From Streptomonospora salina (GTDB taxonomy: Bacteria > Actinomycetota > Actinomycetes > Streptosporangiales > Streptosporangiaceae), in contig NZ_JACHLY010000001.1 of NCBI RefSeq assembly GCF_014204715.1, positions 3,184,501 to 3,248,500 of the forward strand: DNA of 64,000 bases. Direction: 5' to 3'. The notes under the pieces are model-generated. The model saw only the letters and a program-made list of their open reading frames with translations, did no database searches and was not told the DNA's origin. Within the stretch, counting starts at the first letter, position 1. Each line of letters starts with the position of its first letter. The position numbers and the translations under genes are program-made. Positions 12,668 through 39,576 of this stretch are shown here, piece by piece.

Positions 12668-12732
12668 GCGCCGATCTTGTAGCTACGGTCACGGGAAACC
12701 GGTTTCTTTGACGGTAGCTACAAGATCGGCGC
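12668..12732. repeat. Dispersed 65-bp palindromic element, copy 1
   Basis: Perfect 19-bp arms (12668-12686 and 12714-12732, outer sequence GCGCCGATCTTGTAGCTAC) enclose 27 bases. Those bases contain the further palindrome GAAACCGGTTTC, so nearly the whole element can fold. A copy lies at 39516-39576 in the opposite orientation, with 59 of 61 positions identical. Copy 1 lies between divergent genes, and its right arm reaches the expected -35 region of the exonuclease III promoter. It resembles a REP or small non-autonomous element; I know of no named family with this sequence. Confidence 0.8.
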
Positions 12733-12752
12733 CCGACACACGGAATCAGCGC

Positions 12753-12758
12753 TAGCCT
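12753..12758 (+). promoter_or_regulatory. -10 element of the exonuclease III gene
   Basis: TAGCCT lies 6 bases before the GTG at 12765, and there is no SD. This spacing predicts a transcript that starts at or next to the start codon (leaderless). The -35 region would fall at the right end of the palindromic element. Confidence 0.45.
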
Positions 12759-12764
12759 GGCGGG

Positions 12765-13562
12765 GTGCGAATCGCGACGTGGAATGTCAACAGTGTCCGG
12801 GCGCGCGGCGAGCGGATCGCGGCGTGGCTGCAGCGCGGCGACATCGATGTCGCCGCCGTGCAGGAGACCAAGTGCCGCGACGACCAGTTCCCCACCGAGA
12901 TCTTCACCGATCTCGGCTACGAGGTCGCCCACTACGGGCTCTCGCAGTGGAACGGCGTCGCCGTCCTCTCCCGCGTGGGGATCGAGGACGTGCAGACCGG
13001 CTTCCCGGGCCAGCCCGGCTGGGGCGAGACCGAGGCCCCCGAAGCCCGTGCGCTGGGTGCCACCTGCGGCGGCGTGCGGGTGTGGAGCCTGTACGTGCCC
13101 AACGGCCGCGAGGTCGACGATCCGCACTACGACTACAAACTGCGGTGGCTGGAGGCGCTGCGCTCCTACGGCGCCGAGCTCTTGGCCGAGGACCCGCGGA
13201 CGCAGCTCGCGCTGTGCGGCGACTTCAACGTGGCCCCGCAGGACGACGACGTGTGGGACATGGCCGAGTTCGAGGGCAAGACGCACGTGACCGAACCCGA
13301 GCGCGACGCGTTCGCCCGCCTCGTCGACTCCGGGTTCGCCGAGGTCGTGCGCCCCTACACCCCCGGACCGGGGGTGTACACCTTCTGGGACTACAAGCAG
13401 CTGTCGTTCCCCAAGCGCAAGGGCATGCGCATCGACTTCGTGCTGGTCTCGCCGGCGCTGTCCGAACGCGTGTCCGGGGCGGTCATCGACCGCGAGGAGC
13501 GCAAGGGCAAGGGCGCATCCGACCACGCCCCGGTCATGGTGGACCTCGACGGCGGCGCCTGA
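12765..13562 (+). CDS. xthA: Exodeoxyribonuclease III (AP endonuclease)
   Basis: A 265-residue enzyme of the exonuclease III family in the EEP superfamily, acting at abasic sites in base-excision repair. Visible signatures are TWNVNSVRAR at the N-terminus, AVQETKC (catalytic Glu), LYVPNGR, CGDFNVAP and the C-terminal SDHAPV (catalytic Asp-His). The length is typical. The GTG at 12765 is the natural start because the family motif (M)RIATWNVNS begins there; it has no SD and is predicted leaderless. The gene is divergent from the two-component pair and separated from it by the palindromic repeat. Confidence 0.95.
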   Translation: MRIATWNVNSVRARGERIAAWLQRGDIDVAAVQETKCRDDQFPTEIFTDLGYEVAHYGLSQWNGVAVLSRVGIEDVQTGFPGQPGWGETEAPEARALGATCGGVRVWSLYVPNGREVDDPHYDYKLRWLEALRSYGAELLAEDPRTQLALCGDFNVAPQDDDVWDMAEFEGKTHVTEPERDAFARLVDSGFAEVVRPYTPGPGVYTFWDYKQLSFPKRKGMRIDFVLVSPALSERVSGAVIDREERKGKGASDHAPVMVDLDGGA

Positions 13563-13742
13563 GGGGCCGCCGAAAACGATCTCGGCGTCTCCACCGTTCT
13601 CCGGCGCGCTGCGCCGGTGAAAACCCGCGCTCGGCGGGACCGGGCCGGGCGGCGGCCCCCTGCGGCACCCGCATACCCGACGGGTTCCGAGCCGCGCCGG
13701 CGGACACGACCGGGGTCCGCGGCCGGCCGGTAGGGTCGGGGC

Positions 13743-14666
13743 GTGAGTTCGACCACCACTCCCTCGCACCGGCCGCGCATCGCGGTCTTCGGCAGCGTCA
13801 ACATGGACCTCGTCGCCTACGTGGACACCGCTCCGGGCAGGGGCGAAACCGTCACCGGAACCCGGTTCCGCCAGGTTCCCGGCGGCAAGGGGGCCAATCA
13901 GGCGGTGGCGGCGGCCCGCGCCGGCGCCGCCGCCGCGTTCTTGGGCGCCGTCGGCGAGGACGCGTTCGGCACCCAGTTGCGCACCAACCTCGTCGGCTGC
14001 GGTGTCGGGGTCGCCGGGCTGCACACCCGGGGCGCGGCCTCGGGAACCGCCCACATCGTCGTGGAGTCCGACGGCGCCAACTCCATCATCGTGGTCCCCG
14101 GAGCCAACGCCGAGGTCACCGGCCTGCGCACGGGTGACCGGGAACTGATCGCGGGCAGCGCGGCCCTGCTGCTGCAGCTCGAACTGCCGATGGACGCCGT
14201 CGTCGCCGCAGCACGCGCCGGACGCGCCGCGGGGGTGCCGACCGTGCTGACCCCGGCGCCGGCCCGTGAGCTGCCCGCCGAGCTGCTGGAACAGGTCGAT
14301 CTGCTGGTCCCCAACCAGCACGAGGCGGCGAAGATCACCGGTGAGACCGACCCGCGTGCCGCGCTGGCCGCCCTGCTGCGCACCGTCCCGGAAGCCATCG
14401 TCACCCTCGGCGGCGACGGCTCCCTGTACGGCGCGCGCGGCGGCGATCCGGTCCACGTGCCGGCCCGCGCGGCGACGCCGGTCGATACCACCGCCGCCGG
14501 CGACACGTTCTGCGGGGCGTTCGCCGTCGCCCGGGCGGAGGAGCGCTCTCCCGAGGAGTGCCTGCGTTTCGCGGCGGCGGCCGCCGCCGTCTCCGTCGGG
14601 CGGCACGGTGCCGCACCCTCCATGCCGGAGCGCGCCGAGATCGAAGAGCTGTTGGCTCGGGGCTGA
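13743..14666 (+). CDS. rbsK: Ribokinase (PfkB family)
   Basis: A 307-residue sugar kinase that phosphorylates ribose to ribose 5-phosphate. Both PfkB signatures are present: GGKGANQAVAAARAG (about residues 40-55) and DTTAAGDTFCGAFAVA, with the catalytic Asp in AGD. VFGSVNMDLV at the N-terminus is characteristic of ribokinase rather than fructokinase. The GTG at 13743 has a -10-like TAGGGT 6 bases before it and no SD, so a leaderless transcript is likely. There is no ribose transporter next to it. Specificity for ribose is inferred from similarity. Confidence 0.88.
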   Translation: MSSTTTPSHRPRIAVFGSVNMDLVAYVDTAPGRGETVTGTRFRQVPGGKGANQAVAAARAGAAAAFLGAVGEDAFGTQLRTNLVGCGVGVAGLHTRGAASGTAHIVVESDGANSIIVVPGANAEVTGLRTGDRELIAGSAALLLQLELPMDAVVAAARAGRAAGVPTVLTPAPARELPAELLEQVDLLVPNQHEAAKITGETDPRAALAALLRTVPEAIVTLGGDGSLYGARGGDPVHVPARAATPVDTTAAGDTFCGAFAVARAEERSPEECLRFAAAAAAVSVGRHGAAPSMPERAEIEELLARG

Positions 14667-14878
14667 GCCGGAAGCCCCGGACCCGGCTTGCGCGCGGCCG
14701 CGCGCGGCACGAGGCGGGATCCGGGCTCCGTCGGCGCGGCGCTGCGCCGGCAGGTGCGCCGGCGCCGTGCGCCTGCGTCCTCAGGACCGTGCGTCCCCGT
14801 CCGCCGTGCCGGGGCCGCGGGGTGCGCCGAGCGGCGGTCCGGGGGGCGAGAGGAGCCCGTGCGGACCGGGGCGCCGCG

Positions 14879-15496
14879 TCAGGCGACGTGGCCGATCTGG
14901 CGCAGGAAGTGGATGGGGTCGGTGTCCTGGACGCGGAGTTCCAGGACGATGTCGATGGTATCGCCGACCAGGCGGCCGCCCCAGGGCAGCGGCCCGCCGT
15001 CGCCCATGCCGAAGTCGGACAGGCGGACCTGGGTGTTGCCGGCGAAGAAGTGGCCGTACGTGGTGTCCGGGTCGGCGTAGTCGGGGGCTTCCCCCGCCCA
15101 CTGGCACTCCAGGGTGATCGGCTGCGTGGTGCCGTGGATCGTGAGGTCTCCGTGCAGGAAGAAGGTGCGCTTCTGCCGGGAGCGCTCCTCGATCCGGGTG
15201 CTGGCGAACCGGATCTCCGGGTGGGTCTCCACGTCGAGGAAGTCCGGCGAGCGCAGGTGGTCGTCGCGCGCCTGCACGCCGGTGTTGACCGAGGCGGCGC
15301 GGATGCTGACGTCGACCTTGGAGCTCATGGGGTCCTCGGCCACCATGACCGCGCCCTTGGCGTCGCTGAACGTTCCCTGTACCCGTCCGAAGTGCAGGTA
15401 CCGGGCGACGAAGATGAGGCAGGAATGGATGGGATCCAGGTGCCAATGGCCCGGTGCGGGACCGAAGTCGTAGCCCTCAGGCGGGAGTGGGTTCAT
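14879..15496 (-). CDS. YceI-family protein
   Basis: A 205-residue protein of the YceI lipocalin-like family, which binds long isoprenoid or fatty ligands. Typical segments are WHLDPIHSCLIFVARYLHFGRVQGTF at the N-terminus (family pattern W-x-D-x-x-H-S), VDVSIRAASVNTG, DDHLRSPDFLDVETHPEI and LHGDLTIHGTTQPITLE. No signal peptide is visible, so the protein is probably cytoplasmic, as for many actinobacterial members. The ATG follows GAGGGGAAAACAGAC. It is convergent with ribokinase, with 212 bases between them in which I see nothing specific. Its physiological ligand is unknown. Confidence 0.88.
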   Translation of the reverse strand: MNPLPPEGYDFGPAPGHWHLDPIHSCLIFVARYLHFGRVQGTFSDAKGAVMVAEDPMSSKVDVSIRAASVNTGVQARDDHLRSPDFLDVETHPEIRFASTRIEERSRQKRTFFLHGDLTIHGTTQPITLECQWAGEAPDYADPDTTYGHFFAGNTQVRLSDFGMGDGGPLPWGGRLVGDTIDIVLELRVQDTDPIHFLRQIGHVA

Positions 15497-15831
15497 GTCT
15501 GTTTTCCCCTCGTTTGTTCTCTCTCAGGCTAATATCCCGTTTCAATGTCGGACTGCACCGCTCCTCGGGTCGCGTGGCAGGGGTCCCGCGGCCGGTTCAC
15601 GGCACAGGTGCGGCGCCCATTCGCCGGTCCGGGACGATCAAGGGATATCGGCACCCGGTGAAAGGCCGCTTTCGGTCCTCTTTCACATGGTCCGTTGTCG
15701 TATGACTCACACATCGCGCCCGCACGTGCAGCGGCGGTGGTCCCGCGGATCCCGCGGCTCGCGGACTGGCCGGATCCGGGCCTATCGTCCCCGTAGGGTG
15801 GCGATGTCCGCGCTGTACTCTTGTGGAGCGT
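15497..15831. other. Divergent intergenic region, 335 bases
   Basis: It holds the 5' region of the yceI-type gene and the promoter of the first surface-protein paralog. No credible ORF is seen. The only clear element is the -10-like TACTCT at 15816. Confidence 0.5.
15816..15821 (+). promoter_or_regulatory. -10 element of surface-protein paralog 1
   Basis: TACTCT in the context TGTACTCT, exactly 10 bases before the ATG at 15832. The same arrangement (TGTACCCT, 10 bases, start codon) occurs in front of the second paralog at 16636. The conserved surroundings suggest a duplicated promoter with a very short or absent leader. Confidence 0.5.
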
Positions 15832-16530
15832 ATGCGCCGTGGATCCCCTGCACACTATGGAACCGGCGCCGGTGCGCCCATCCCCGACACGTCAGCGATC
15901 CGTATGAGTAGCGACACCCGAGACGCCGAGCCCGTCCCGACCCGGACCGTCAGGCGCCGGCAGGAGCGGCGCCGCAGGCGCCTGCTGCTTGCGGCGGGCA
16001 CTCTTGCGGCGGGTCTGGCCTTCGGCGGCGTGTTCGCCGTGATCCTTTCGCTCAGCGGCGAAGGCACCGAGATCGGCGTGGACGAGCCGCCGCCCCCCGA
16101 CGACACGAGCGCCGGCCCGACCGAGGCCCCGGTCGTCGACGGCGAGCAGCAGACCACGGCCGAAGCGACCGCGCCGGCGGCGGAACCCGAGCCGGCGCAG
16201 GAGGAGCAGGACGAGAGCGGCGACGCGGCCGGTGCGGATCCCGGCGGCGGCGCGGAATCCGGGGATACCCGGGAGCGGCCGGACTCCGGCGACGGCGACG
16301 GGACCGCCGGCGACCGTCCCGCCGGCGACGGGTCCGACGATGACGGGTCCGGTCAGGGCCGCCCGCCGTGGCGCGACGACGCCGACGGCGACCGCGACCG
16401 CGACCGCGACCGCGACCGCGACCGTGGCCGTGATCGCCCGTACGCGACCGGTTCGCCGGAGAGCGGCGACTACGACTACGGCGACTACGACTACGGGGAT
16501 GACGACTACGGCGACCGCTACGGCGGATGA
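15832..16530 (+). CDS. Membrane-anchored acidic/low-complexity protein, paralog 1
   Basis: A 232-residue protein with a basic cytoplasmic N-terminus (TRTVRRRQERRRRRLLL), one membrane helix (about residues 48-70), then an extracellular region rich in Pro, Glu, Asp and Gly. It ends in a DR-rich run (encoded partly by a 6-base repeat) and Tyr/Asp/Gly repeats of the form DYDYGD. The N-terminal 50 residues match the next gene (16652-17491) almost without gaps. That match begins at the ATG at 15832, not at the internal ATG at 15904, which supports the upstream start. Unlike the paralog it has no cellulose-binding-like domain. Function unknown; a wall-associated or matrix-binding role is possible. 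Confidence 0.6.
   Translation: MRRGSPAHYGTGAGAPIPDTSAIRMSSDTRDAEPVPTRTVRRRQERRRRRLLLAAGTLAAGLAFGGVFAVILSLSGEGTEIGVDEPPPPDDTSAGPTEAPVVDGEQQTTAEATAPAAEPEPAQEEQDESGDAAGADPGGGAESGDTRERPDSGDGDGTAGDRPAGDGSDDDGSGQGRPPWRDDADGDRDRDRDRDRDRGRDRPYATGSPESGDYDYGDYDYGDDDYGDRYGG
16390..16419 (+). repeat. Hexanucleotide tandem repeat (GACCGC)
   Basis: Four copies of GACCGC plus one GACCGT encode the Asp-Arg run of the protein at 15832-16530. A unit of 6 bases keeps the frame when copies are gained or lost, so the length of the run could vary between strains. Confidence 0.7.
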
Positions 16531-16635
16531 CGCCTACGGCGGCCGGAGCGGAGACCGCCTCCGGCCGCCCCGTTCGCCGAGGCCGTGGCCGGATCCGGAA
16601 GAATCGCCCCGCCTTCGCGTGGAATGAGCACGTTG

Positions 16636-16641
16636 TACCCT
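16636..16641 (+). promoter_or_regulatory. -10 element of surface-protein paralog 2
   Basis: TACCCT in the context CGTTGTACCCTGA, 10 bases before the GTG at 16652. This is the same spacing as at paralog 1. A similar CGTTGTAACCTGA occurs at 38597-38609, upstream of the surface protein at 38744. Confidence 0.5.
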
Positions 16642-16651
16642 GATCTGGCCT

Positions 16652-17491
16652 GTGCGCCGCGGGGCCCCTGGACTCGGTGGAACCGGCGCCGGCGCGTCCG
16701 CCCCCGAGAACCCGGTGATCCGTATGAGCAGCGACCGTGGAGACGCCGAACCCGCCATCACGCGCACCGTTCGGCGCAGGAAGGAGCGCCGAAAGCGCCG
16801 CCTGCTGGCCGGCGGCGCCGCGGCCTCGGCCCTCGCCTGCGGCGCCGCGCTCATCATGGGCATGACGCTGAGCGGCGGCGACACCGAGGTGGACGTCGAC
16901 GACCCGCCCGCACCCGCGCGCTCCACCGGCGCGAGCCCCACCCCGGACCCCGTCGGCGACGGTGAGCAGCACTCCTCCGCCGAGGCGGCGGCTCCCGCCG
17001 CCACCCCCGAAACCCCTGCGCAAGCACCGCAGGACGACGGCGGCGGCGACGGCGGCGGCGAGGGCGACGACTCCGGATCGGGCGGCTCCGGCGGTGGCGG
17101 CTCCGGGGGCGGGGAGAACGGCGCGGGTGCATCCGGCGGATCCGGCGGATCCGGCACCGGGTCCGCCGGCGGCTCCGAACCGGAGGAGGACGGCGCGGGC
17201 TGCCAAGCCGGATACTCCGTCGTCGACGAGTGGCCCGGCGGCTTCCAGGCCGAGGTCTCGGTGAGCGCCGACGCGGCCATCAGCGGCTGGACGGTGACCG
17301 TCGAGTTCCCCGACGGCCAGGAGATCGACGAGTCGTGGAACGCCGAGGTCTCCGGCGGATCAGGCTCCTACACCGCGACCGGCGTCGGCCGCGACAGCTC
17401 GCTGGACGACGGCGAAAGCGCCGGATTCGGCATCATCGGCACACACGGCGGCGACAACGGCACGCCCGCGGTGAGCTGCTCCGCGAGCTGA
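16652..17491 (+). CDS. Membrane-anchored protein with C-terminal CBM2-like domain, paralog 2
   Basis: A 279-residue protein with a basic N-terminus, one membrane helix (about residues 48-68), a long Pro/Ala/Gly/Ser linker (about 75-180) and a C-terminal domain of about 100 residues that resembles carbohydrate-binding module family 2. Markers of that family are the cysteine at the domain start (GCQAGYSVVDEW), PGGFQAEVSVS, ISGWTVTVEF, SWNAEV, the fGIIG strand and a final PAVSCSAS with the partner cysteine. The aromatic residues Trp at 191 and in GWTV and SWNA are retained. No catalytic domain is attached. It probably displays a polysaccharide-binding module on the cell surface. It is a tandem duplicate of the preceding gene in its first 50 residues and promoter. 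Confidence 0.72.
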   Translation: MRRGAPGLGGTGAGASAPENPVIRMSSDRGDAEPAITRTVRRRKERRKRRLLAGGAAASALACGAALIMGMTLSGGDTEVDVDDPPAPARSTGASPTPDPVGDGEQHSSAEAAAPAATPETPAQAPQDDGGGDGGGEGDDSGSGGSGGGGSGGGENGAGASGGSGGSGTGSAGGSEPEEDGAGCQAGYSVVDEWPGGFQAEVSVSADAAISGWTVTVEFPDGQEIDESWNAEVSGGSGSYTATGVGRDSSLDDGESAGFGIIGTHGGDNGTPAVSCSAS

Positions 17492-17521
17492 CCCCTCCGC
17501 CGCGGGAACCCCGCCCCGGCG

Positions 17522-19255
17522 CTACATCTGCTCCGGTGCCCGCACGCCCAGCAGGTTCAGACCGGTCTCCAGGGTGCGCAGCGTGGCCGCGATCAGCGCG
17601 AAACGGGACTCGCGCACCGCCGGATCCGCGGCCTGCAGCACCGGGCAGTGCTCGAAGAACCCGGTGAACGCCTGCGCGAGGTCGAACAGGTAGGCGCACA
17701 GCCGGTGCGGCTCCAGGGTCGCGCCGACGGTGGCCACCGTCGGGCCGAAGCCCAGCAGCGCCAGCGCCAGCTCGCGCTCGGCGGGCTCGGTGACCGCCAC
17801 CGGCCCCGTGGCGCCGGCCGGGTCCACACCGCCCTTGCGGAAGATCGACCGGATGCGCGCGGTCGCGTACTGCAGGTAGGGGCCGGTGTTGCCGTGCAGC
17901 GCCAGCATCCGGTCGAAGTCGAAGACGTACTCGGAGTCGTGCGAAACCGAGAGGTCGGCGTACTTCACGGCGCCGATGCCGACCTCGCGGGCGATGCCGG
18001 CGCGGGTGGCCTCGTCCAGATCCGGGCGGTTCTCGGCGACCACCGCCGCCGCGCGTTCGATCGCCTCGTCCAGCAGCTCCATCAACCGCAGCGGTTTTCC
18101 GCTGCGGGTGCGCAGGATCTTGCCGTCCGAGCCGAGCACGTTGCCGATCTGCACGTGGACGGGCTCGACGTCCTCGGGCAGCCACCCCGTCTTGCGGGCG
18201 GTCTCCCACACCATCCGCAGGTGCAGGGACTGCGGCGCGCCGACGACGTACAGCAGCCGGCGCGCGCCCAGCTCCTCGACGCGGTACTTGACCGTGGCGA
18301 GGTCGGTGGTGCCGTAACCGTAGCCGCCGTCGCTCTTGCGCACGATCAGCGGCACCGGTTTGCCTTCGCGCCCGGTATAGCCGTCGAGGAAAACGCACAG
18401 CGCGCCGTCGCTCATCTCGGCGATGCCCTCGCGCTCCAGCTCTTCGCAGATGCCGGGCAGCAGGTCGTTGTACTTGCTCTCGCCGGCGAGGTCGGCGTCG
18501 GTGAGCGTGACGTCGAGCTTGTCGTAGATCCGGTTGAAGTACACCGTGGAGAGGTCGACCAGCTCCCGCCACAGCCGCAGCGTCTCGCCGTCGCCCGCCT
18601 GGAGGTCGACGACGCGCTTGCGTGCCCGCGCCGCGAACTCCTCGGAAGCGTCGAACTGCTCGCGCGCCGCCTGGTAGAAGGCGTTGGGGTCGGTCTTGAC
18701 GAGTTCCGCCTCGGCCGATCCCTCGCCGGCGTCGAGCAGGTGCTCGATCAGCATGCCGAAGGGGGTGCCCCAGTCGCCGATGTGGTTCTGGCGGGCCACG
18801 TCGTGGCCCAGCGCCTCCAGCACGCGCACCAAAGAGTCGCCCACGACGGTGGTGCGCAAGTGCCCGACGTGCATCTCCTTGGCGACGTTGGGCGCGGAGT
18901 AGTCGATCGCGACGGTCTCGGACTCCTGCTTCGGAACCCCCGCCCGCGGGTCGTTCAGCAGATCTTGGGCCTGCGCGGCGATCCAGTCGTCGCGCAGCGT
19001 CAGGTTGACGAAGCCGGGGCCGCTGATCTCGACGTGTCGGCACAGGTCGTCGACGTCCAGCTGCGCGACGATGTCGGTCGCGACGTCGCGCGGGGCCCGG
19101 CCGAGGCGCTTGGCCAGCGCCAACGCGGCGTTGGCCTGGTAGTCGGCGAACTGGGACGGGCGGATGACGGGGTCGGTTCCGGCGAATTCGGCGCCGAGAG
19201 CTGCGCCGAGAGCGGACTGGACCCGTGCTGCGAGAGTCTCCTGCGGGGCGGCCAT
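17522..19255 (-). CDS. argS: Arginyl-tRNA synthetase
   Basis: A 577-residue class I aminoacyl-tRNA synthetase that charges tRNA-Arg. It has the N-terminal ArgRS additional domain (about residues 1-90), the SAPNVAKEMHVGHLRTT block with the HIGH-like HVGH, the Rossmann core, GSDGKILRTRSGKPLRL in the place of the KMSKS loop, and the C-terminal DALR anticodon-binding domain (NTGPYLQYATARIRS onward, ending LLGVRAPEQM). The length is normal for the family. The gene is convergent with the CBM2 paralog, ending 30 bases from its stop. The downstream neighbour on this strand is not lysA or a homoserine gene, unlike the order seen in some actinobacteria. Confidence 0.97.
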   Translation of the reverse strand: MAAPQETLAARVQSALGAALGAEFAGTDPVIRPSQFADYQANAALALAKRLGRAPRDVATDIVAQLDVDDLCRHVEISGPGFVNLTLRDDWIAAQAQDLLNDPRAGVPKQESETVAIDYSAPNVAKEMHVGHLRTTVVGDSLVRVLEALGHDVARQNHIGDWGTPFGMLIEHLLDAGEGSAEAELVKTDPNAFYQAAREQFDASEEFAARARKRVVDLQAGDGETLRLWRELVDLSTVYFNRIYDKLDVTLTDADLAGESKYNDLLPGICEELEREGIAEMSDGALCVFLDGYTGREGKPVPLIVRKSDGGYGYGTTDLATVKYRVEELGARRLLYVVGAPQSLHLRMVWETARKTGWLPEDVEPVHVQIGNVLGSDGKILRTRSGKPLRLMELLDEAIERAAAVVAENRPDLDEATRAGIAREVGIGAVKYADLSVSHDSEYVFDFDRMLALHGNTGPYLQYATARIRSIFRKGGVDPAGATGPVAVTEPAERELALALLGFGPTVATVGATLEPHRLCAYLFDLAQAFTGFFEHCPVLQAADPAVRESRFALIAATLRTLETGLNLLGVRAPEQM

Positions 19256-19333
19256 GGTGCAAGCCTACCGAGCTGCTAAACCGCCCGTGTTCGGTTCTGC
19301 GCTCGGGGCGCCCGGGCGGTGCCGCGCCCCGCC

Positions 19334-22186: not shown

Positions 22187-22230
22187 CGGAGGGCTCCCGG
22201 ACGCCCGGCGGCGGGCTCGTCCGGGTTCAT

Positions 22231-22268: not shown

Positions 22269-22291
22269 GCACCCTGATTCCGATTGACCTG

Positions 22292-23393: not shown

Positions 23394-23439
23394 GCACCTC
23401 CCGGGCGAGGCGGCCGGGGTCGTCTACAGTGGTCCGACG

Positions 23440-30683: not shown

Positions 30684-32939
30684 GAACCGCAGCACCAGCA
30701 TGGCGGTGTCGTCGGTGTGGCCGCCCGGGGCGAACTCCTCCAGGTCGCGGTCGATACGGACGATGACGGCCTGGGCCGTCAGCCCCGAGCAGTTGGTGAA
30801 GATGTCGCGCAGGCCCTCGTCGCCGAGCATCTGCGTGCCGTTGCGGCGTTCGGTGACGCCGTCGGTCACCGCCAGCAGGACGTCGCCCGACCCGATCTCC
30901 AGGGTCTCGGTGAAGAATTCGACGTCCTCGAACGCCCCCAGCAGCGGCTGGGAGCTGCCGACGGAGCCGACCTCGCCCTTGCGGTCGAGCCGGAGCGGCA
31001 GCGGGTGGCCCGCCGATACCAGCCGCAGGCGCATCCCCTGGCCGGGCGCGCCCAGCGGGGTCATCTCGCCGTAGAGCATGGTCAGAAACCGCGTGCTGGT
31101 GTTCTCGTCCAGGATGGCCTTGTTCAGCCGGTCCATGATGTGGGCGGGTGAGAACCCTTCGCGGGCCAGCGCGCGCAGGGTGTGCCGCGCCAGGCCCGTG
31201 ACCGCGGCGGCCTCGGGGCCGGTGCCGCACACGTCGCCGATGGCGAAGCACCACCGGCCGTCGGTGGCGAAGACGTCGTAGAAGTCGCCGCCCACCACGG
31301 TGCGCTCGTCGGCCGAGCGGTAGAACACCGCATGGTCGACGCCGGGGATGGCCGGCTCCTTCTCCTTGGCGGGCAGCAGACTGCGCTGCAGCGCCTCGCT
31401 CATCGAGGTCTGCCCCGCATACAGCCGCGCGTTCTCCAGCGCCGAGGACACCCTGCGGGCGAGGTCGTCGACGACGTCGACGTCGTCGCGGGTGAAGTCC
31501 TCGTCGGCGTCCTTGCCCAGGGTCAGCCGGCCCAGGGTCTGGCCGTGGGCCACCAGCGGCACGCTGATAGCGGGCCCTTCGGCCAGTTCCAGCAGCAGTT
31601 CGTCGACGAGCCCGGCTGCCGAGAGCGACTCGCGGCTCCACAGCGGGCGCGCCTCGCGCTGGATGTGCGGCGGCAGCTCGGTCAGCAGCGTGCGCAGCAC
31701 GTCGTTGTAGTTCTCGTTGCGGTGGATGGCGTGCGTCAGCCGCGTGGTGCCCAGCTCGCTGGTGGACTCCACCGCGCACCAGCTGCCCAGCCGCGAGGCG
31801 ACCAGTTGGCAGGCCAGAGCGGCGGTCATCTGCTCGTCGAGGGTTCCGGTCAGCAGGTCGCTGGCCTCGGCCAGGAAGCTCAGGCTGGCGCGGCGGGCCA
31901 GCTCGACCTCGGCCAGTCGCGCACGCTCGATCGGCAGCGCGATGCGGTCGGCGCCGTCCTGCAGGCGTTTGGCGGCGGTGTCGCCGAAGTGCCGGACGCG
32001 CCGCGAGGCCACGCCGATCAGCCCGGCGACACGGCCGTCGACGATCAGCGGCGCTGTCACCAGGGAACGCATGCCGGCCTGGGCGAGTTTGCCGCGGTGG
32101 GCGCGGGCGATCATCAGGTCGTCGTTGATGGTGGCGCCCGCCGCCGGCGTCACCGACGGGAAGGTCTCTTCGGTGCGGCTGCGGAACGGCCGCCAGGGCT
32201 CGTCGGTCAGGCCGGTGGCCGCGCGCAGGTCCCACTCGGTCTCGTCGGTGGTGGCCAGGGCGATATAGGCGGCGTCGCCGCCCAGCGCCGAGCGGGAGTA
32301 CTCCACGGTGCGGTCGAGCAGCTCGGGCAGCGGCAGCCGCGCCGAGAGGGCGGCGTCCAGCGCCGCCCAAGGGTTGGGCCGGAAGGGCCGGCGCCGCGCG
32401 GGGCGTACCGGGTCCGGCGGCTCCAGCGACGTGCCTGCGGTTTCGCCGTCGGTATCCGGGTCCTTCGACGCCTCGCCGTCCTCGTCCCGGATGCGGAACC
32501 AGACGGCCTTGTCGTCCTTGCTGTAGCTGACGCCCCAGCTGCTGGCGACCGCCCCGGCCAGCGCCAGTCCCAGCCCGCCGCTGCGCCCGGGGTCGGCGGA
32601 GGCGGAGACGTCGACCGACAGCGGGCCCGCCTGGGGGACGGCACGCTCGGGAACCCGGTCCGCGACCACGACCTCGACCGCCGAGGGCAGGCGGCGCACG
32701 ACCAGTTCCAGATTGCTCTCGGCGTGCACGACCGCGTTGGTGACCAGCTCGCTGACGAGCAGGACGACGTCGTCGGCGGCCTGGTCGGCGCTCCATTCGG
32801 CGAGGGTGTCGCGTACGAAGTCCCGCGCCTCGGCCGCGGTCCCGGGGGTGGGCGAGAACTCGCGCCGGGCGGCCTTCATCGTCTCGTGTGGCATCGTGAA
32901 GCCGTACGTTCTCTCCAGTTGCGGGAGGAAGGCGGGCAC
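30678..32939 (-). CDS. osaC: OsaC-like regulator: anti-sigma ATPase, GAF domains, SpoIIE phosphatase
   Basis: About 753 residues. An N-terminal RsbW-type HATPase domain (VSELVTNAVVHAESN; GGLGLALAGA) is followed by a GAF-like region, a second GAF domain and a C-terminal SpoIIE PP2C phosphatase (GGDFYDVF, GDVCGTGPEAA, VTDGVTERR, DDTAMLVLRF). This order and the divergent position next to the multi-HAMP kinase and its regulator match osaC of Streptomyces coelicolor, which modulates the osmotic-stress sigma factor SigB after stress. The start is uncertain: GTG at 32939, ATG at 32894, or further upstream at 33029, none with a strong SD. The gene ends in a hairpin shared with the regulator at 30051. 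The functional assignment is inferred from domain order and synteny. Confidence 0.8.
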   Translation of the reverse strand: MPAFLPQLERTYGFTMPHETMKAARREFSPTPGTAAEARDFVRDTLAEWSADQAADDVVLLVSELVTNAVVHAESNLELVVRRLPSAVEVVVADRVPERAVPQAGPLSVDVSASADPGRSGGLGLALAGAVASSWGVSYSKDDKAVWFRIRDEDGEASKDPDTDGETAGTSLEPPDPVRPARRRPFRPNPWAALDAALSARLPLPELLDRTVEYSRSALGGDAAYIALATTDETEWDLRAATGLTDEPWRPFRSRTEETFPSVTPAAGATINDDLMIARAHRGKLAQAGMRSLVTAPLIVDGRVAGLIGVASRRVRHFGDTAAKRLQDGADRIALPIERARLAEVELARRASLSFLAEASDLLTGTLDEQMTAALACQLVASRLGSWCAVESTSELGTTRLTHAIHRNENYNDVLRTLLTELPPHIQREARPLWSRESLSAAGLVDELLLELAEGPAISVPLVAHGQTLGRLTLGKDADEDFTRDDVDVVDDLARRVSSALENARLYAGQTSMSEALQRSLLPAKEKEPAIPGVDHAVFYRSADERTVVGGDFYDVFATDGRWCFAIGDVCGTGPEAAAVTGLARHTLRALAREGFSPAHIMDRLNKAILDENTSTRFLTMLYGEMTPLGAPGQGMRLRLVSAGHPLPLRLDRKGEVGSVGSSQPLLGAFEDVEFFTETLEIGSGDVLLAVTDGVTERRNGTQMLGDEGLRDIFTNCSGLTAQAVIVRIDRDLEEFAPGGHTDDTAMLVLRFL

Positions 32940-33270
32940 GGCCGCAGTGCGGCCGCCAGGACCCCGGCCCCCGATCCCTTCGATCGGTGACGACCCGCGG
33001 TGTCGGCGTGCGCTCGCCGGAGCGGGCACAGTGGGGACGGCGACGGGACCATCATTTCAGAAGGCTCGTCGCGTGGGCTGACAGGCCGCATAGCCTAGAG
33101 CTCGCGGCCCATCTCGGCTGACGTCTGGTATGGCCATCGTCCTTAACGGTACGGTGCGTCGATGACCGGGGGCGACGATCCTGCCACGTGAGATCGTTCC
33201 CCCGATCAGGCGGCCCCGGTCCCCCAACCGGCCCGAGATGCCCGTAGTGAGCAGTATGAGGAGGGGATCA
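32940..33270. other. Divergent promoter region between osaC and osaA
   Basis: 331 bases that hold the 5' ends of both divergent genes. On the minus strand a -10-like TAGGCT is seen at about 33090-33095. The SD of osaA (GAGGAGGGGATCA) ends the region. Part of the stretch may encode the N-terminus of osaC if an upstream start is used. Confidence 0.4.
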
Positions 33271-36200
33271 ATGCCAGAGGCCACACGGGCGCCGGACGAC
33301 AAGCACGATGCGCAGCTCGACGAGCTGCTCCGCGCGCTCTACAGCATGCGAGACGGCGATTTCAGTGTACGGCTGGACTCTCGCGGCGAGGGCCGGTCCG
33401 GTGAGATCGCCTCCGTCTTCAACCAGGTCCTGGACCACTGCGAGCAGCTCAGCAGCGAGCTGCAGCGGGTCGGCGGCGTCGTCAGTACCGAAGGCAGACT
33501 CAACGAGCGCATCGCCGTCAGCCCCGCACGCGGCGCGTGGGGCAAGAGCGTCCGTTCGCTGAACCAGCTGCTCGACGAGGTCAGCGAACCGGTGACCTCC
33601 GTCGCCCAGATCCTGGATGCGGTCGCCGGCGGCGACCTGTCCCAGCGGGTCGACCTCACCAGCCGCCACGGCTCGCTCCACGGCGACCTGCTGCGCCTGG
33701 CCACGTCGGTCAACCGCATGGCCGACCAGATGAACGGCTTCACCAACGAGGTCACGCGCGTGGCCCGCGAGGTGGGCACCGAAGGCAAGCTGGGCGGCAG
33801 CGCCAAGGTCGACGGGGTCTCCGGCGCCTGGCGCGACGTCACCGAATCGGTCAACCAGATGGCGTCGCGCCTGACAGCGCAGGTGCGCAACATCTCCGAA
33901 GTCACCACCGCGGTGGCCGAGGGCGATCTGAGCCGCAAGGTCACCGTCGACGTCCAAGGCGAGATGCTGCAGCTGAAGGACACCGTGAACGGCATGGTGG
34001 ACCAGCTCGACTCCTTCTCGGACGAGGTCACGCGCGTGGCCCGCGAGGTGGGTACCGAGGGCAAGCTGGGCGGCCGCGCCAACGTCAAGGGCGTCTCGGG
34101 CATCTGGAAGAACCTGACCGACAACGTCAACTCCATGGCCGACAACCTGACCAACCAGGTGCGCGACATCTCCCAGGTGACCACGGCCGTGGCGCGCGGC
34201 GATCTCAGCCGCAAGGTGACCGTGGACGTCCAGGGCGAGATGCTGCAGCTCAAGGACACGGTCAACACGATGGTGGACCAGCTCGACTCCTTCGCCGACG
34301 AGGTCACCCGGGTGGCCCGCGAGGTGGGTACCGAGGGCAAGCTGGGCGGCCGCGCCAACGTCAAAGGCGTGTCGGGTATATGGAAGGACCTGACCGACAA
34401 CGTCAACTCCATGGCCAACAGCCTCACCTACCAGGTGCGCAACATCTCGCAGGTGACCACGGCCGTGGCCAAGGGCGACCTGTCCAAGAAGATCACGGTC
34501 GACGCCCAAGGCGAGATGCTCGACCTCAAGGACACGGTCAACACGATGGTCGACCAGTTGGAGTCCTTCGCCAACGAGGTCACCCGCATGGCCCGCGAAG
34601 TCGGCACCGAGGGGACGCTGGGCGGCCAGGCGCACGTGCGCGGGGTGTCGGGGGTCTGGAAGGACCTGACCGACAACGTCAACTCCATGGCCAACAACCT
34701 GACCCACCAGGTGCGCCAGATCTCCATCGTCACGCAGGCGGTCGCGCGCGGCGACCTGACCAAGAAGGTCACCGTCAACGCCAAGGGCGAGATCCTGGAG
34801 CTGAAGGACACCATCAACGTCATGGTCGACCAGCTGGACTCCTTCTCCGACGAGGTCACCCGCATGGCCCGCGAGGTGGGTACCGAGGGCAAGCTGGGCG
34901 GCCGCGCCGACGTCAAGGGCGTCTCGGGCATCTGGAAGGACCTCACCGAGAACGTCAACTCGATGTCGCAGAACCTCACCACCCAGGTACGCAACATCTC
35001 CCAGGTCACCTCCGCGGTGGCCAAGGGCGACCTGTCCAAGAAGATCACCGTCGACGCCCAGGGGGAGATCCTGGAGCTGAAGGACACCGTGAACATCATG
35101 GTGGACCAGCTGTCGGCGTTCGCCACCGAGGTCACCCGCGTCGCCCACGAGGTCGGCAGTGAGGGCGAGCTGGGCGGTCAGGCCAAGGTCGACGGTGTCT
35201 CGGGCACCTGGAAGCAGCTCACCGACAGCGTCAACGAGCTGGCCGGGAACCTCACCACCCAGGTGCGCGCGATCGGCGAGGTGGCCAGCGCGGTCACCCG
35301 CGGCGACCTCACGCAGAACATCCAGGTCGACGCCCGCGGCGAGATGCAGAAGCTCAAGGACAACATCAACCTGATGGTGAGCAATCTGCGCGAGACCACC
35401 GCGTCCCAGCGCGACGAGGACTGGCTGAAGTCCAACCTGGCGCGCATCTCCGGCCACATCCAGGGCCACCGCGACCTCAACGAGCTGGCCCGGCTCATCA
35501 TGACCGAGGTCACTCCGCTGGTCGAGGCCCAGCACGGCGCCTGCTACCTGCCCGAGGAGAAGGACGACGAGGAAGTCTTCCTGCTCTTCGGCAGCTTCGG
35601 CTACCGCCCCGACGACGACCGCCGCCGGGTGCGCTCCGGCACGGGCCTGGTCGGCGAGGTCATCGCGCAGAAGAGCGAGATGCTCATCAACGACGTGCCG
35701 TCCGACTACGTCAAGGTCGGTTCGGGCCTGGGCGAGGCGGCGCCGCTGACCATCGCGATCTTCCCGATCATCTCCGAGGACCGGGTCCTGGGCGTGGTCG
35801 AGCTCGGCTCCTACGGGCGTTTCCGCGAGGTGCACCTGGACTTCCTGCGCCAGCTGATGGCCCAGCTGGGCACCACGGTCAACACCATCCTGGCCAACTC
35901 CAAAACCGAGTACCTGCTGCTGCAGTCGCGCCAGCTGACCAACGCGCTGCAGGAGCGCTCCAACGAGCTGCAGCGCCAGCAGGAGGAACTGCGCCGCAAG
36001 AACGCGGAGCTGCACAGCAAGGCGGGCCAGCTGGCCAGCCAGAACCGGGCGATCGAGCTGCAGAACCGCCAGATCGAACGGGCGCGGCGCTCGCTGGAGG
36101 ACCGCGCCCACCAGCTGCAGGTCTCCTCCAAGTACAAGTCCGAGTTCCTGGCGAACATGTCCCATGAGCTGCGGACTCCGCTGAACAGCCTGCTCATCCT

Positions 36201-37614
36201 GGCGCGGCTGCTGGCCGACAACAGCGAGCAGAACCTCACCTCCAAGCAGGTGGAGTTCGCCCAGACGATCCACAAGGCGGGCCACGACCTGCTCCAACTC
36301 ATCGACGAGATCCTGGATCTGGCCAAGGTCGAGGCCGGCCGGGCCGAGGTGCAGCCCACCGACGTGTCGATCAGCCAGCTGGTCGACTACGTCGAGGCGT
36401 CCTTCAGGCCGATGGCCGCCGAGCGCGGGCTGGCCTTCGGCGTGGACGTCTCCCCGGACATCCCGAGCTACCTGTGGACTGACGAGCAGCGGCTGCAGCA
36501 GATCCTGCGCAACCTGCTGTCCAACGCGGTGAAGTTCACCAGCACCGGCGAGGTCCGGCTGCTCATCGAGCCGGCTTGGGCGCTGGAGGACGCCGACCTC
36601 GACATGTTCGGTGAGAACGACGAGATCGTCGCGCTCTCGGTCGCCGACACCGGCATCGGCATCCCCGACGACAAGCTGCAGGTGGTCTTCGAAGCGTTCC
36701 ACCAGGGCGACGGCGGCACCAGCCGGCGCTTCGGCGGTACCGGCCTGGGACTGTCCATCAGCCAGAACTACGCGCGGCTGCTGGGCGGCGAGATCCGGGT
36801 GCAGAGCGTGCACGGCGAGGGCAGCACCTTCACGCTGCTGCTGCCGGTGCGCGTGCCCGAGGGCACCGCCGAGCGGATCGAGGCGTCGCTGGACTCCCCG
36901 CCCGAGCCGGTGACCGGGGCGCGCGCCGACATCGAACCGCTCACCGAGGTCGACGTGCAGGTTCCCGACAGCCCGGCGGACCTGAGCCCGCTGGAGACCA
37001 TCGAACCCGCGGAGGTCGAGGAGGAGTCCGAGGCCGACGGGGCCGAGGAGCAGCCGGCTCCGGTCCCCGCACTGGCCGAGCCCGCCGAAGCCGCGATGGA
37101 AGGCGAGGCCGGTGCGTCCTCCGAGACCGGCGCCACACCCGATCCCGACCGGGACGCGGCGCTGGCCGGGCGCGAGGTACTCATCGTCGACGACGACATC
37201 CGCAACGTGTTCGCCCTGACCAGCGCATTGGAGGCGCACGGGCTGCGCGTGCACTTCTCCGACAACGGGCATTCGGGTATCGAGAAACTGGAGGCCAACG
37301 AGAACGTCGAGCTGGTCCTGATGGACATCATGATGCCGGAACTCGACGGCAACGCCACCACCCGTGCGATCCGGGAGATGCCGCAGTTCGCGGATCTGCC
37401 GATCATCTCGCTGACCGCGAAAGCGATGCAGGGCGACCGCGAACGCAGCCTGGAGGCGGGCGCATCGGACTATGTGACCAAGCCCGTCAATCTCGACCAC
37501 CTGCTCAACGTGATCCGCAGGTGGCTGGACGGCGACGGTGACGAAGCGGGCGGATCGGGCCGGCAGAGCCCGGACGGCACCGGTGGGGCCGACAGCCCGG
37601 ACAGCACGGACTAG
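33271..37614 (+). CDS. osaA: OsaA-like soluble hybrid histidine kinase with a long HAMP array
   Basis: A 1447-residue protein without membrane helices. Residues 1-710 are a chain of HAMP units; five of them (residues 202-661) are exact 92-residue repeats with near-identical sequence. A GAF domain (about 730-880) and a coiled coil (about 885-950) follow, then HisKA (phospho-accepting His965 in [11 protein letters not shown]), HATPase ([18 protein letters not shown]) and, after an acidic linker, a receiver domain with Asp1352 in [11 protein letters not shown]. Poly-HAMP hybrid kinases of this type sense osmotic stress in fungi (group III, Nik1), and OsaA does so in streptomycetes. The gene is divergent from osaC and followed after 17 bases by osaB. 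The ATG at 33271 follows GAGGAGGGG. Confidence 0.85.
33874..35253 (+). repeat. Five tandem 276-bp units inside osaA
   Basis: Units begin at 33874, 34150, 34426, 34702 and 34978 with no length variation. A sixth, partial unit starts at 35254. Each encodes 92 residues with TxQVRxIxxVTxAVxxGDL at the front and VREVGTEGxLGG-like segments in the middle. The units are alike at the DNA level in long stretches, suggesting past duplication and possibly gene conversion. Copy number could change by recombination. Confidence 0.85.
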
Positions 37615-37631
37615 GAGCAGGAGCAGCAGAC

Positions 37632-38270
37632 GTGCCGCAGAAGGCCAACATCCTCCTCGTTGACGACCGCGACGAGAACCTCACGGCCCTGGAGGCCATC
37701 CTCACCTCCCTGGACCAGAACCTGGTGCGCGCGAATTCGGGGGAGGCGGCCTTGAAAGCGCTGCTCGAAGACGAGTTCGCGGTCATCCTGCTCGACGTCG
37801 TGATGCCGGGGATGGACGGTTTCGAGACCGCGTCCCACATCAAGCAGCGCGAGAAGACCAAGGATGTGCCCATCATCTTCCTCACCGGTGCCGGAATCGA
37901 CCGGCACCGGGTCTTCCGCGGGTACGCGTCGCGGGCGATCGACTACCTGACCAAGCCGTTCGATCCGTGGGTGCTGCGTTCCAAGGTCGAGGTGTTCGTG
38001 GAGCTGCACCAGATGAAGCAGCGGCTGCGCACGCAGTCGCAGTTGTTGCAGCGGGACCTCTCCGCCGAGACCGGGGAGTCGTCGGCGCCGGTCTCCGACC
38101 AGCTCTCCCGGCGGGTCGCCGACATCAACACCAACCTGGAGTCGCTGCGGGAGAAGGTCGTCACCGAAGAGCACGACAGCGATCCGAGCACGATCGAGGC
38201 GGTCCGCGATCTCGACCGGGCTGTGGCGCAGTTGACGACCCTCGTCGACGCGATCCGCGGGCCGGAGTAG
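37632..38270 (+). CDS. osaB: OsaB-like response regulator without DNA-binding domain
   Basis: A 212-residue protein with a receiver domain (ILLVDDRDENLTALEAIL; phospho-acceptor Asp in VILLDVVMPGMDG; Lys in DYLTKPFDP) and a C-terminal region of about 80 residues predicted to form a coiled coil (HQMKQRLRTQSQLLQRDL, then TNLESLREKVV and AVAQLTTLVDAI). No DNA-binding domain is present. OsaB of Streptomyces coelicolor, needed for osmoadaptation, has the same plan. The GTG at 37632 follows AGGAGCAGGAGCAGCAG, and the gene starts 17 bases after osaA, so they form an operon. The assignment is inferred from synteny and architecture. Confidence 0.82.
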   Translation: MPQKANILLVDDRDENLTALEAILTSLDQNLVRANSGEAALKALLEDEFAVILLDVVMPGMDGFETASHIKQREKTKDVPIIFLTGAGIDRHRVFRGYASRAIDYLTKPFDPWVLRSKVEVFVELHQMKQRLRTQSQLLQRDLSAETGESSAPVSDQLSRRVADINTNLESLREKVVTEEHDSDPSTIEAVRDLDRAVAQLTTLVDAIRGPE

Positions 38271-38743
38271 GGGCAGGCGGCGGGGGCGGCCGGAATCGGC
38301 CACCCTTGCCGGCGGGGGCGGTTTCCACCGAGGGCACGCCGGACGGGTGCGGCGGCCGGGGGCTCGGGATTCCCTACAGGGCGGCCGGAGCGATCGGGGC
38401 GTGAATCGCTGGAACCGGTGCCGCCCCGGCGGCGTCTCAGTCGGCGAAGATCGGGCGGTCCCGCCCTCGACGGGGGCGCGGGAAGCTCGGAGACCTGCGG
38501 TCTCGTGTAGGCAATAGAGGGCGAATCGTCCCGGTTCGAGGGTGTTGAGCCCTCAGTCCCCTCCGCGCATACCGCACCCGCCGGTCCCCATACCCCCGTT
38601 GTAACCTGACCCGGTCTTCCCGCCGTATGCCGCACGATTCGCCGCCGCGGTCAGGGCCGCTCGGATTCTGCCGGTTCGAGCCGCTACACGTGGTGCGGCG
38701 CGGAACCAAGCTGCCTTCCCTCGGACCCATTGGAGCGACAACC
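38271..38743. other. Intergenic region between osaB and the surface protein gene
   Basis: 473 bases with no convincing gene. A -10-like TAACCT at 38602, in the context CGTTGTAACCTGA, matches the promoter context of the CBM2 paralog at 16636. An in-frame ATG at 38627 could lengthen the next protein, but the GTG at 38744 has the SD. Confidence 0.45.
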
Positions 38744-39484
38744 GTGTCCCCTACGATGTCCCGCACCGCCTCCGGGCTCGCCGCCGTCTGCTTGGGCCTG
38801 GGTGCCTCGCTCGCCGCGACGCCAGTGTGGGCGGACAGCCCTCAGGGCACCACGGGAACGTTCAGTTACACCTGTGCCGACCAGGTCGACGACCTCTCGG
38901 AGACCTCGGATATGGACTTCCGCGTCACGGCTCCCGCCGAGAGCGAGGTCGGCGAGGAGATCGAGTTCCAGATCCAGCCGGGCGGGCACACGTACTACTA
39001 CTACGTCGACGGCGGCGACATCATCTCGGGCACCCTCGCGGCCGACGTCGAACTCGGAGGGGACGCCGCTCCGTCGCCGACCGCCACCGCCTCCATCGAG
39101 GCCCAAGGCGCCTTCAGCCCGGACGACAACGACACCTTCGACGAGTCGACCCTGAGCGGCACGTTCACCCCTACGGCCCCGGGCGAGGTCACGCTGGCGC
39201 CCGGCGAGGTCACCGTCGAAGTAACCCAGACGCCCGGGGACTCGACCACCGTCTGCTCGCCGGACAGCGCCACCGAGGCGCTGGCCACCGTCACCGTCAC
39301 CGGCGAGGCCGCCGACGCCGGATCCGGCGACGACGGCGGCTCCTCCGACCAGGGGCAGCCGGCGGCCTCCGACGACGGAGTGCCGCAGGCCGTACTCATC
39401 GGCGGCGCCGTGGTCGGCGGCCTGCTGGTGATCGTCGGCCTCGCGGGCTTCGGACTGATGTTCTTCTTCATGCGCCGCTCCTGA
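38744..39484 (+). CDS. Secreted, membrane-anchored surface protein
   Basis: A 246-residue protein with a signal peptide (GLAAVCLGLGASLAATPVWA, likely cut after VWA), an extracellular domain of about 150 residues that is acidic and beta-rich by appearance, with two cysteines (YTCADQ and VCSPDS) that could pair, a low-complexity Asp/Gly/Ser linker, and one C-terminal membrane helix (VLIGGAVVGGLLVIVGLAGFGLMFF) ending MRRS. It is therefore a single-pass surface protein. The domain was not recognised. The GTG at 38744 follows TTGGAGCGACAACC. It is convergent with the hydrolase gene, and the palindromic repeat copy 2 lies between them. Confidence 0.65.
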   Translation: MSPTMSRTASGLAAVCLGLGASLAATPVWADSPQGTTGTFSYTCADQVDDLSETSDMDFRVTAPAESEVGEEIEFQIQPGGHTYYYYVDGGDIISGTLAADVELGGDAAPSPTATASIEAQGAFSPDDNDTFDESTLSGTFTPTAPGEVTLAPGEVTVEVTQTPGDSTTVCSPDSATEALATVTVTGEAADAGSGDDGGSSDQGQPAASDDGVPQAVLIGGAVVGGLLVIVGLAGFGLMFFFMRRS

Positions 39485-39515
39485 CGCCCCCCGGCTCCGG
39501 CCCTGGGCGCGCCGT

Positions 39516-39576
39516 CGATCTTGTAGCTACCGTGATAGAAACCGGTTTCCCGTGACCGTAGCTACAAGATCGGCGC
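39516..39576. repeat. Dispersed palindromic element, copy 2
   Basis: 15-bp perfect arms (39516-39530 and 39558-39572; CGATCTTGTAGCTAC) enclose 27 bases containing GAAACCGGTTTC. Read on the opposite strand, 59 of 61 positions equal copy 1 at 12668-12728. This copy lies between two convergent genes, 32 bases after the stop of the surface protein gene, so it could also act as a terminator there. Confidence 0.8.

What the first reader, a model, noticed from the sequence alone, without database searches (positions are those of the whole stretch)
12668..39576. Two inverted copies of a near-identical 61-65 bp palindrome 27 kb apart
Copy 1 (12668-12732) and copy 2 (39516-39576) share 59 of 61 positions in opposite orientation. 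Both keep a 27-base centre with GAAACCGGTTTC between long arms ending in TTGTAGCTAC. One lies at divergent promoters, the other between convergent genes, so a simple terminator role does not explain both. This degree of identity in non-coding DNA suggests recent spread, a constrained function (protein site or structured RNA), or both. I cannot name a family it belongs to.
Basis: seen in the sequence. Interest (0 to 1): 0.75.

Follow-up and report, generated by a model that had tools for sequence, protein, structure and literature searches.

The report
REP-like fixed-length palindromes behind genes
The two palindromes belong to a family of dozens of 55-base hairpin elements scattered between genes in this bacterium and some relatives, where they mostly sit just behind genes, seem to stand in for ordinary transcription stops, and serve as landing sites for jumping genes; what copies them is unknown.

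Summary
In detail: the copies match at 59 of 61 positions in opposite orientation. They are 2 of 31 places in this genome. The element is a 55-bp palindrome, GATCTTGTA-N37-TACAAGATC. Exact ends and spacing occur in 10 of 315 family genomes, 3 of 62 genera, at up to 56 copies, and in none of the other 395 genomes of a phylum sample. The interior differs by species but stays paired: 82% Watson-Crick at pairs 10-19, against 14-21% when slid. Of 120 copies held, none lies inside a called gene; 58 of 115 lie between convergent genes, against 107 of 637 other gaps. Element-bearing convergent gaps hold fewer other hairpins than expected (12 of 35 against 18.8). Most places lack an intact element in relatives. 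Two copy-rich relatives show no REP-type transposase. IS110-type insertion sequences sit exactly at the palindrome's end in three genera; two carry guide-like sequences matching it. Best reading: a REP-like family without RAYT, acting as a two-way gene-end hairpin. Terminator activity and the copying agent are inferred.

The parts
12673..12727 (.). copy 1, 55-bp core GATCTTGTA-N37-TACAAGATC; read on the - strand it has the offset (bulged) centre in the family orientation
12669..12731 (.). copy 1 with the outer paired CGCC/GGCG, 63 bp
   Evidence: outer pairs tabulated for all copies
12660..12668 (.). outer extension (CGGGAATCG...) shared with some other copies in this genome (seen beside L109, L111, L114 at 11189, L115, L116)
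39517..39571 (.). copy 2, 55-bp core; read on the + strand it has the offset centre in the family orientation
39513..39575 (.). copy 2 with the outer CGTC/GGCG, 63 bp
12765..13562 (+). flanking gene, endonuclease/exonuclease/phosphatase family (PF03372), starts 37 bp from copy 1
11844..12566 (-). flanking gene called by my own gene caller, starts 106 bp from copy 1 on the other side; family not tested in this frame
38756..39484 (+). flanking gene (called 38756-39484; the longer ORF 38627-39484 has no Pfam match), ends 32 bp before copy 2
39595..41205 (-). flanking gene, S15 peptidase (PF02129, PF08530), ends 23 bp from copy 2

Best explanation
The palindromes are copies of a dispersed, non-coding, REP-like element family found in some species of at least three genera of one actinobacterial family. 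SHOWN by computation: one length (55 bp), near-invariant 9-bp ends, species-specific interiors kept palindromic by paired changes, placement between genes and mostly just behind them, and presence at most places in one species but not in its relatives. SHOWN: IS110-type insertion sequences in three genera lie exactly at the palindrome's edge, and an IS30-type one splits a palindrome near its middle. INFERRED: at gene ends, above all between convergent genes, each copy acts as a two-way hairpin that ends or protects transcripts, standing in for an ordinary GC-rich hairpin. INFERRED: copies spread as passengers of an activity that recognises the ends and length or the folded hairpin; that activity does not look like a RAYT and was not found.
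For: 31 places here. With a free gap of 30-45 the exact ends give 28 matches in G000 and with a fixed gap of 37 also 28, so the length is not imposed by the pattern in this genome. 10 of 315 family genomes, 3 of 62 genera. Pairing 0.82 at pairs 10-19 against 0.14-0.21 slid; pair 10/46 is C-G in 64 and G-C in 36 of 103 distinct rows. None of 120 held copies inside a called gene; convergent 58 of 115 against 107 of 637 gaps, P 1.4e-13; divergent 12 of 115 against 165 of 637; median 51 bp from 3' gene ends. Fewer other hairpins in element-bearing convergent gaps: 12 of 35 against 18.8 +/- 2.1 expected, P 0.0025. At 8 of 9 comparable convergent loci each relative examined holds a stronger hairpin than the non-element part of the G000 gap. 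In G001, 22 of the 31 neighbourhoods were found on both flanks: 5 intact elements, 1 split by an IS, 16 without an intact element. IS junctions and guide-like sequences.
Against: No T-run follows copy 2 and no terminator-like site is found there. About half the held copies are not between convergent genes, and 12 of 115, copy 1 among them, lie in divergent gaps. One of the 9 comparable loci (L110 at 6115) keeps a strong hairpin of its own besides the element. The stricter control shrank the effect seen (12 of 35 against 97 of 126). Some relatives' hairpins may come from degenerate elements (L104 in G005, L117 in G001, by eye). No transposase or exact insertion unit was found; no target duplication could be read. 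At shared places interiors are no more alike than random pairs (0.70 against 0.67, P 0.13), which does not show simple inheritance. Most of the covariation is between species, not within.
Confidence: 0.58

Rival explanations
1. Binding sites of a dimeric chromosomal DNA-binding protein; the species-wide switch of the arms reflects a protein whose specificity changed, and sites sit in gaps because they are tolerated there.
For: Near-invariant 9-bp ends and one spacing; pair 10/46 is species-specific (G-C in 29 of 30 G000 copies, C-G in 45 of 47 G001 copies), also at six shared places.
Against: Half of the genus genomes (G002, G003, G004) show none; 55 bp of pairing is far longer than a usual operator (recalled); divergent promoter gaps are avoided; loss of other hairpins in the same gaps is not predicted.
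Confidence: 0.15
2. A MITE: internally deleted derivative of a DDE transposon whose terminal inverted repeats are GATCTTGTA..., moved in trans.
For: Inverted ends, dispersed copies, absent at most orthologous places, groups of near-identical copies in G001.
Against: Length is fixed and interiors differ between species yet stay paired, unlike deletion derivatives; no autonomous partner with these ends in the DNA held: isolated half-sites are 1 of 59, 4 of 31 and 3 of 79 in G000, G005 and G001, and the one IS between two halves is IS30-type and interrupts a palindrome that is intact at the same place in G000. Only about 1.07 Mb of three genomes was examined for half-sites, plus one arm type of whole G001.
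Confidence: 0.15
3. A structured RNA element (regulatory or small RNA) made from one strand.
For: Strong folding (mean -35.4 kcal/mol in 30 G000 copies, -45.7 in 13 G005 copies) and covariation.
Against: Both strands fold about equally; orientation relative to neighbouring genes looked mixed by eye; no Rfam match in the window.
Confidence: 0.07

Closest known systems
REP / BIME sequences with RAYT transposases (PMC2817692: abstract and passages seen)
   Same: Short extragenic palindromes, species-specific sequence, dispersed, targets of insertion sequences, suggested role near transcription ends.
   Different: No RAYT in two copy-rich relatives; no common GTAG/GTGG head across species; 55 bp against roughly 20-37 bp for the REPs in the passages seen; mostly single, not in BIME arrays; tens, not over a hundred, copies; invariant ends plus fixed length across genera.
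IS621 and other IS110 elements that target REP (PMC11208160 passages; PMC1525189 abstract and passages)
   Same: An IS110-type IS lies at one exact point of an extragenic palindrome; its left end carries a direct copy of the left target and a reverse-complement copy of the right flank, as bridge-RNA target guides do.
   Different: Here the target is the outer edge of this palindrome and the right guide-like stretch follows the local flank; no RNA has been shown.
MITEs (recalled)
   Same: Non-coding, inverted ends, dispersed.
   Different: One fixed length, covarying interior, no partner transposon found.
Bidirectional intrinsic terminators (recalled)
   Same: Hairpin between convergent genes, soon after stop codons.
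   Different: One repeated family with invariant ends; no T-run at copy 2.

Membership tests
REP/RAYT | short extragenic palindrome repeated over the genome | tested here: met
   31 places; none of 120 held copies inside a called gene
REP/RAYT | associated Y1_Tnp (RAYT) gene in the genome, flanked by two REPs | tested here: not met
   PF01797 in 6 genus genomes: none in G001 and G005 (57 and 32 copies), two partial matches in G000, full-length match only in G002, which has no copies. G001 is 97% complete; carriers of the other genera were not tested.
REP/RAYT | conserved GTAG/GTGG-type head at the 5' end of the repeat | tested here: not met
   ends are GATCTTGTA in all genera; GTAG occurs inside G000 copies but G001, G005 and g46 copies read GTAC there; head as seen in Table 1 passages of PMC2817692
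REP/RAYT | more than 100 copies, often in BIME arrays | tested here: not met
   at most 57 copies by the patterns used; mostly single, a few pairs 0.7-6 kb apart
MITE | terminal inverted repeats shared with an autonomous transposon | tested here: inconclusive
   none in the DNA examined, but carrier genomes were not read whole
MITE | target-site duplication | tested here: inconclusive
   empty sites too diverged to read
intrinsic terminator | GC-rich stem followed by a T-run | tested here: not met
   no terminator-like site at copy 2 on either strand; other copies not scanned
intrinsic terminator | ends transcription | not testable with these tools
   no RNA data; indirect support
known RNA family (Rfam 15) | match above gathering score | tested here: not met
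   0 matches in the window
IS110 target (bridge-RNA type) | guide-like sequences in the IS that match both sides of the target | tested here: met
   TACAAGATC at LE position 74 (G001) and 75 (G091), P 0.001 each in shuffles; at position 99 the reverse complement of the right flank, 8 and 10 nt; in G001 two other 8-nt reverse-complement matches to the first 60 bases also occur, so its right guide alone is not significant

The most novel reading that the evidence does not exclude
A RAYT-independent class of extragenic palindrome whose length and ends are fixed across genera while its arms are rewritten species by species, also at shared places. It spreads by an unknown activity that measures or folds it, works as an interchangeable two-way gene-end signal that displaces ordinary terminators, and is the natural guide-encoded target of IS110 elements in two genera.
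Probability: 0.35. Interest if true: 0.78.

Novelty: new variant of a known kind. Interest (0 to 1): 0.6.

Why it matters
REPs are explained by RAYT transposases (PMC2817692). A REP-like family without one raises the question of what else can copy palindromes around a genome; the fixed length, invariant ends and species-wide arm switches are specific clues to that agent. If the elements end transcription, a selfish-looking repeat has taken over a core gene-end function, testable gap by gap because relatives keep the ordinary hairpin. The IS110 junctions give natural guide and target pairs in Actinobacteria in which both predicted guides can be read from sequence.

Tried and rejected
RAYT link: searched in six genus genomes, not supported. 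Exact 10-bp arms in genome contigs: 15 stretches, mostly in unrelated taxa, with unlike interiors (some in Mycobacterium/Mycolicibacterium), taken as chance or other repeats. Viral contigs: 5 stretches, GC 0.28-0.43, interiors not palindromic, taken as chance. Plasmids: 3 weak partial matches; the megablast of L125 meant to name the organism did not. Gene cassettes mobilised by paired palindromes: attractive because an AbiEi-like gene lies between palindromes in G000 and, at another place, in G001, and an M78 peptidase gene pair and another AbiEi-like gene also lie between palindromes; but another pair flanks what reads by eye as purC, so it is not general. That L231 shows the L122 place interrupted in G001 was considered and dropped after comparing gene order. 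Simple inheritance of the shared copies is not shown. Rfam: nothing in the window. A first comparison of hairpins was replaced by a stricter one, which weakened the effect.
Full report
WHAT IS THERE. Copy 1 (12668-12732) and copy 2 (39516-39576) are as described: 59 of 61 positions match between copy 2 and the reverse complement of copy 1. Written symmetrically each is a palindrome of about 63 bp with a 55-bp core from GATC to GATC. Folding gives -43.7/-39.3 and -33.9/-31.0 kcal/mol for the two strands of the two copies, z -6.0 to -10.8.

FAMILY IN THIS GENOME. BLAST of copy 1 finds 59 matches at 31 distinct places (my count of places; the first look listed exactly 40 candidates, so more diverged copies may exist). 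16 places match TTGTAGCTAC-N{15,45}-GTAGCTACAA, all with a 27-base gap, reversed control 0. Fixed-length matching in the fetched regions recovers the same 31 (one with 4 mismatches in the ends); a palindrome filter keeps 30.

FAMILY IN RELATIVES. The exact arm of this genome is absent from the five other genus genomes, but relaxed searches find diverged relatives of the same build. With the pattern (250 family genomes, up to 3 mismatches) 20 genomes match: 30 in G000, 57 in G001, 32 in G005, 24 in G011, 2-8 in four genomes of genus g46, single hits in 12 others that look like chance coding sequence, 0 in G002, G003 and G004; the reversed control matches in 1 of 250. With exact 9-bp ends and a 37-base gap, 10 of 315 family genomes of at least 90% completeness match, in 3 of 62 genera, with 56, 47, 35, 28, 20, 7, 6, 2, 2 and 2 copies, controls 0. 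Carriage is patchy inside genera: 3 of 6 genus genomes, 1 of 2 in g7. In a phylum sample of 396 genomes the same ends with a 30-45 base gap match only the own genome. A genome-contig scan with 10-bp arms and a viral scan gave unlike sequences.

ANATOMY. The free-gap count (28) equals the fixed-gap count (28) in this genome, and a free gap of 34-46 between TTGTA and TACAA gave only one length in the loci, so the length is really constant there; in the other genera the length was fixed by the search. From 120 copies in the DNA held (30 G000, 47 G001, 14 G005, 8 G011, 21 of genus g46; 103 distinct by genome and sequence) pairs 1-9 and 16/40 are nearly invariant, while pairs 10, 11, 13, 14, 15 and 17 change by paired substitutions: 10/46 is C-G in 64 and G-C in 36 of 103, 14/42 is C-G in 48 and T-A in 37. 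Pairing over pairs 10-19 is 0.82, against 0.14-0.21 slid by 1-3. Most of this covariation is between species: shuffling partners within genomes reaches the observed pairing in 500 of 500 trials for pair 10/46 and in 9-10 of 500 for pairs 15, 17 and 19. In the window's genus the centre is offset by one base and many loops read GCGA; in G000 the inner spacers are often not complementary.

POSITION. Genes were called by my own codon-usage caller. Of 115 copies with called genes on both sides, 58 lie between convergent, 45 between co-directional and 12 between divergent genes; other gaps of 60-600 bp in the same DNA are 107, 365 and 165 of 637 (Fisher P 1.4e-13 for convergent, 1.8e-4 for divergent). 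Five more copies lie at edges of the held DNA; none lies inside a called gene. The median distance to a 3' gene end is 51 bp. The background comes from fetched neighbourhoods, not whole genomes. Hairpin orientation against neighbouring genes looked mixed by eye. Copy 2 is a typical member, copy 1 a minority one.

TERMINATOR SUBSTITUTION. In 35 element-bearing convergent gaps of G000, G001 and G005 a second hairpin of -20 kcal/mol or better occurs in 12; element-free convergent gaps of matched length, cut at the same relative place, would give 18.8 +/- 2.1 (P 0.0025; medians -17.1 against -20.5, P 0.024). A looser version gave 12 of 35 against 97 of 126. I listed 10 convergent loci of G000 for comparison with relatives; one (L125) had no usable relative. 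In 8 of the other 9 each relative examined has a stronger hairpin than the non-element part of the G000 gap; at copy 2 the values are -38.5, -35.8 and -37.0 in G001, G005 and G004 against -13.6. L110 at 6115 goes the other way. The relatives' gaps were taken whole and are mostly longer than the G000 leftovers, which favours them, and at L104 (G005) and L117 (G001) degenerate elements may contribute (by eye). No T-run follows copy 2. So the element lies where a terminator would be and seems to replace it; termination itself is inferred.

GAIN AND LOSS. For the 31 own copies I looked for the same neighbourhood in G001, using its held loci and a flank search for 22 copies. Both flanks were found for 22: 5 have an intact element (L102, L103, L105, L108, L124), 1 (L112) has a palindrome split by an IS30-type element, 16 have no intact one; 6 were found on one side only (among them L120, where G001 L139 has an element beside the shared gene) and 3 not at all. 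In G005 the flank search gave both flanks for 17, 0 intact (a degenerate one at L104 by eye); in G004 for 8, 0 intact; for G005 and G004 nine of the 31 copies were not given their own flank query. Conversely, G001 carries an element (L204) at a place matching window 4560-4825, where this genome has none. At six shared pairs, L120/L139 included, each copy has its own species' state at pair 10/46, but interiors are no closer than random pairs (0.70 against 0.67, P 0.13). Either copies are homogenised within a species or separate insertions hit the same spots; this evidence cannot choose.

WHO USES IT. In G001 (L166) an IS with an IS110-type transposase (PF01548, PF02371) begins directly after ...TACAAGATC. 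Four contig ends of G011, another genus, break off in a similar IS end at the same point. In G091, a third genus, a transposase of 52% identity lies behind a diverged palindrome at the same junction. The left ends of the G001 and G091 ISs carry TACAAGATC at position 74 and 75 (P 0.001 each in 2000 mononucleotide shuffles) and at position 99 the reverse complement of the right flank, 8 nt in G001 and 10 nt in G091; in G001 two further 8-nt matches of that kind occur elsewhere, so its right guide alone is weak. The layout is that of bridge-RNA target guides as described for IS621, which targets E. coli REP (PMC11208160, passages). It is a prediction; no RNA was shown. Several IS families target REPs (PMC1525189, abstract and passages). 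In G001 an IS30-type IS (HTH_38 and rve frames, split; family label recalled) lies inside a palindrome at the place where G000 L112 has an intact one.

WHAT COPIES IT. Apparently not a RAYT: PF01797 was not found in G001 and G005, gives two partial matches in G000, and is full-length only in G002, which has no copies. G001 is 97% complete in 110 contigs, so a miss there is possible; carriers in other genera were not tested. Isolated half-sites are rare (1 of 59, 4 of 31, 3 of 79 in held G000, G005 and G001 DNA) and look like diverged or interrupted palindromes or chance. I did not find the agent.

LITERATURE. In the held open-access library I searched REP with Nocardiopsis, intergenic palindromes in Actinobacteria, IS110 with REP, REP with RAYT and Actinobacteria (0 papers), IS30 with palindromes, terminators as repeats, the end sequences as text (45 papers, the 15 listed are on other subjects) and Streptomonospora genomes. 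From the listings I saw no description of this family; subscription papers and preprints are not held.

VERDICT. A real, large, REP-like family; membership in REP/RAYT fails on the transposase, head and copy-number features. It works, most likely, as a two-way gene-end hairpin and spreads by an unknown activity.

Noticed in passing
L166 1556-2864 and beyond (G001 C22), L191 (G091 C6), contig ends of G011 (L173, L174, L194, L195): IS110-type insertion sequences start directly after the palindrome; in G001 and G091 their left ends hold sequences that look like bridge-RNA target guides for the palindrome's end and the local right flank.
   Followed up: partly
L223 2768-3989 (G001 C100) and L231 from about 179 (G001 C63): An IS30-type insertion sequence with a split reading frame lies inside a palindrome; a fragment of the same IS follows a half palindrome in L231.
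   Followed up: partly
L106 5385-6628 (G000), L139 5050-7070 (G001), L120 5461-7618 (G000), L122 5493-7486 (G000): Accessory genes (AbiEi-like, M78 peptidase) lie between two palindromes; the L106 gene lies between palindromes in G001 too but in a different neighbourhood, and synteny breaks fall at the palindromes.
   Followed up: partly
L127 about 4590-6570, L131 about 3760-5460, L134 about 1100-2320, L138 about 4990-5650 (G005): Tracts with repeated segments of about 200-270 bp, some containing a palindrome; not identified.
   Followed up: no
window 4560-4825: Place where the relative G001 has a palindrome (L204) and this genome has none.
   Followed up: partly
L163 1226-1555 and L166 1224-1555 (G001): Two palindromes behind unrelated genes share about 275 bp of upstream non-coding DNA at 93% identity, starting near the stop codon of each gene.
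   Followed up: no
flanks of many copies in G000, G001 and G005: Beyond the paired CGNN, the 5' flank tends to be C-rich and the 3' flank G-rich on either strand (by eye; flank pair counts).
   Followed up: no
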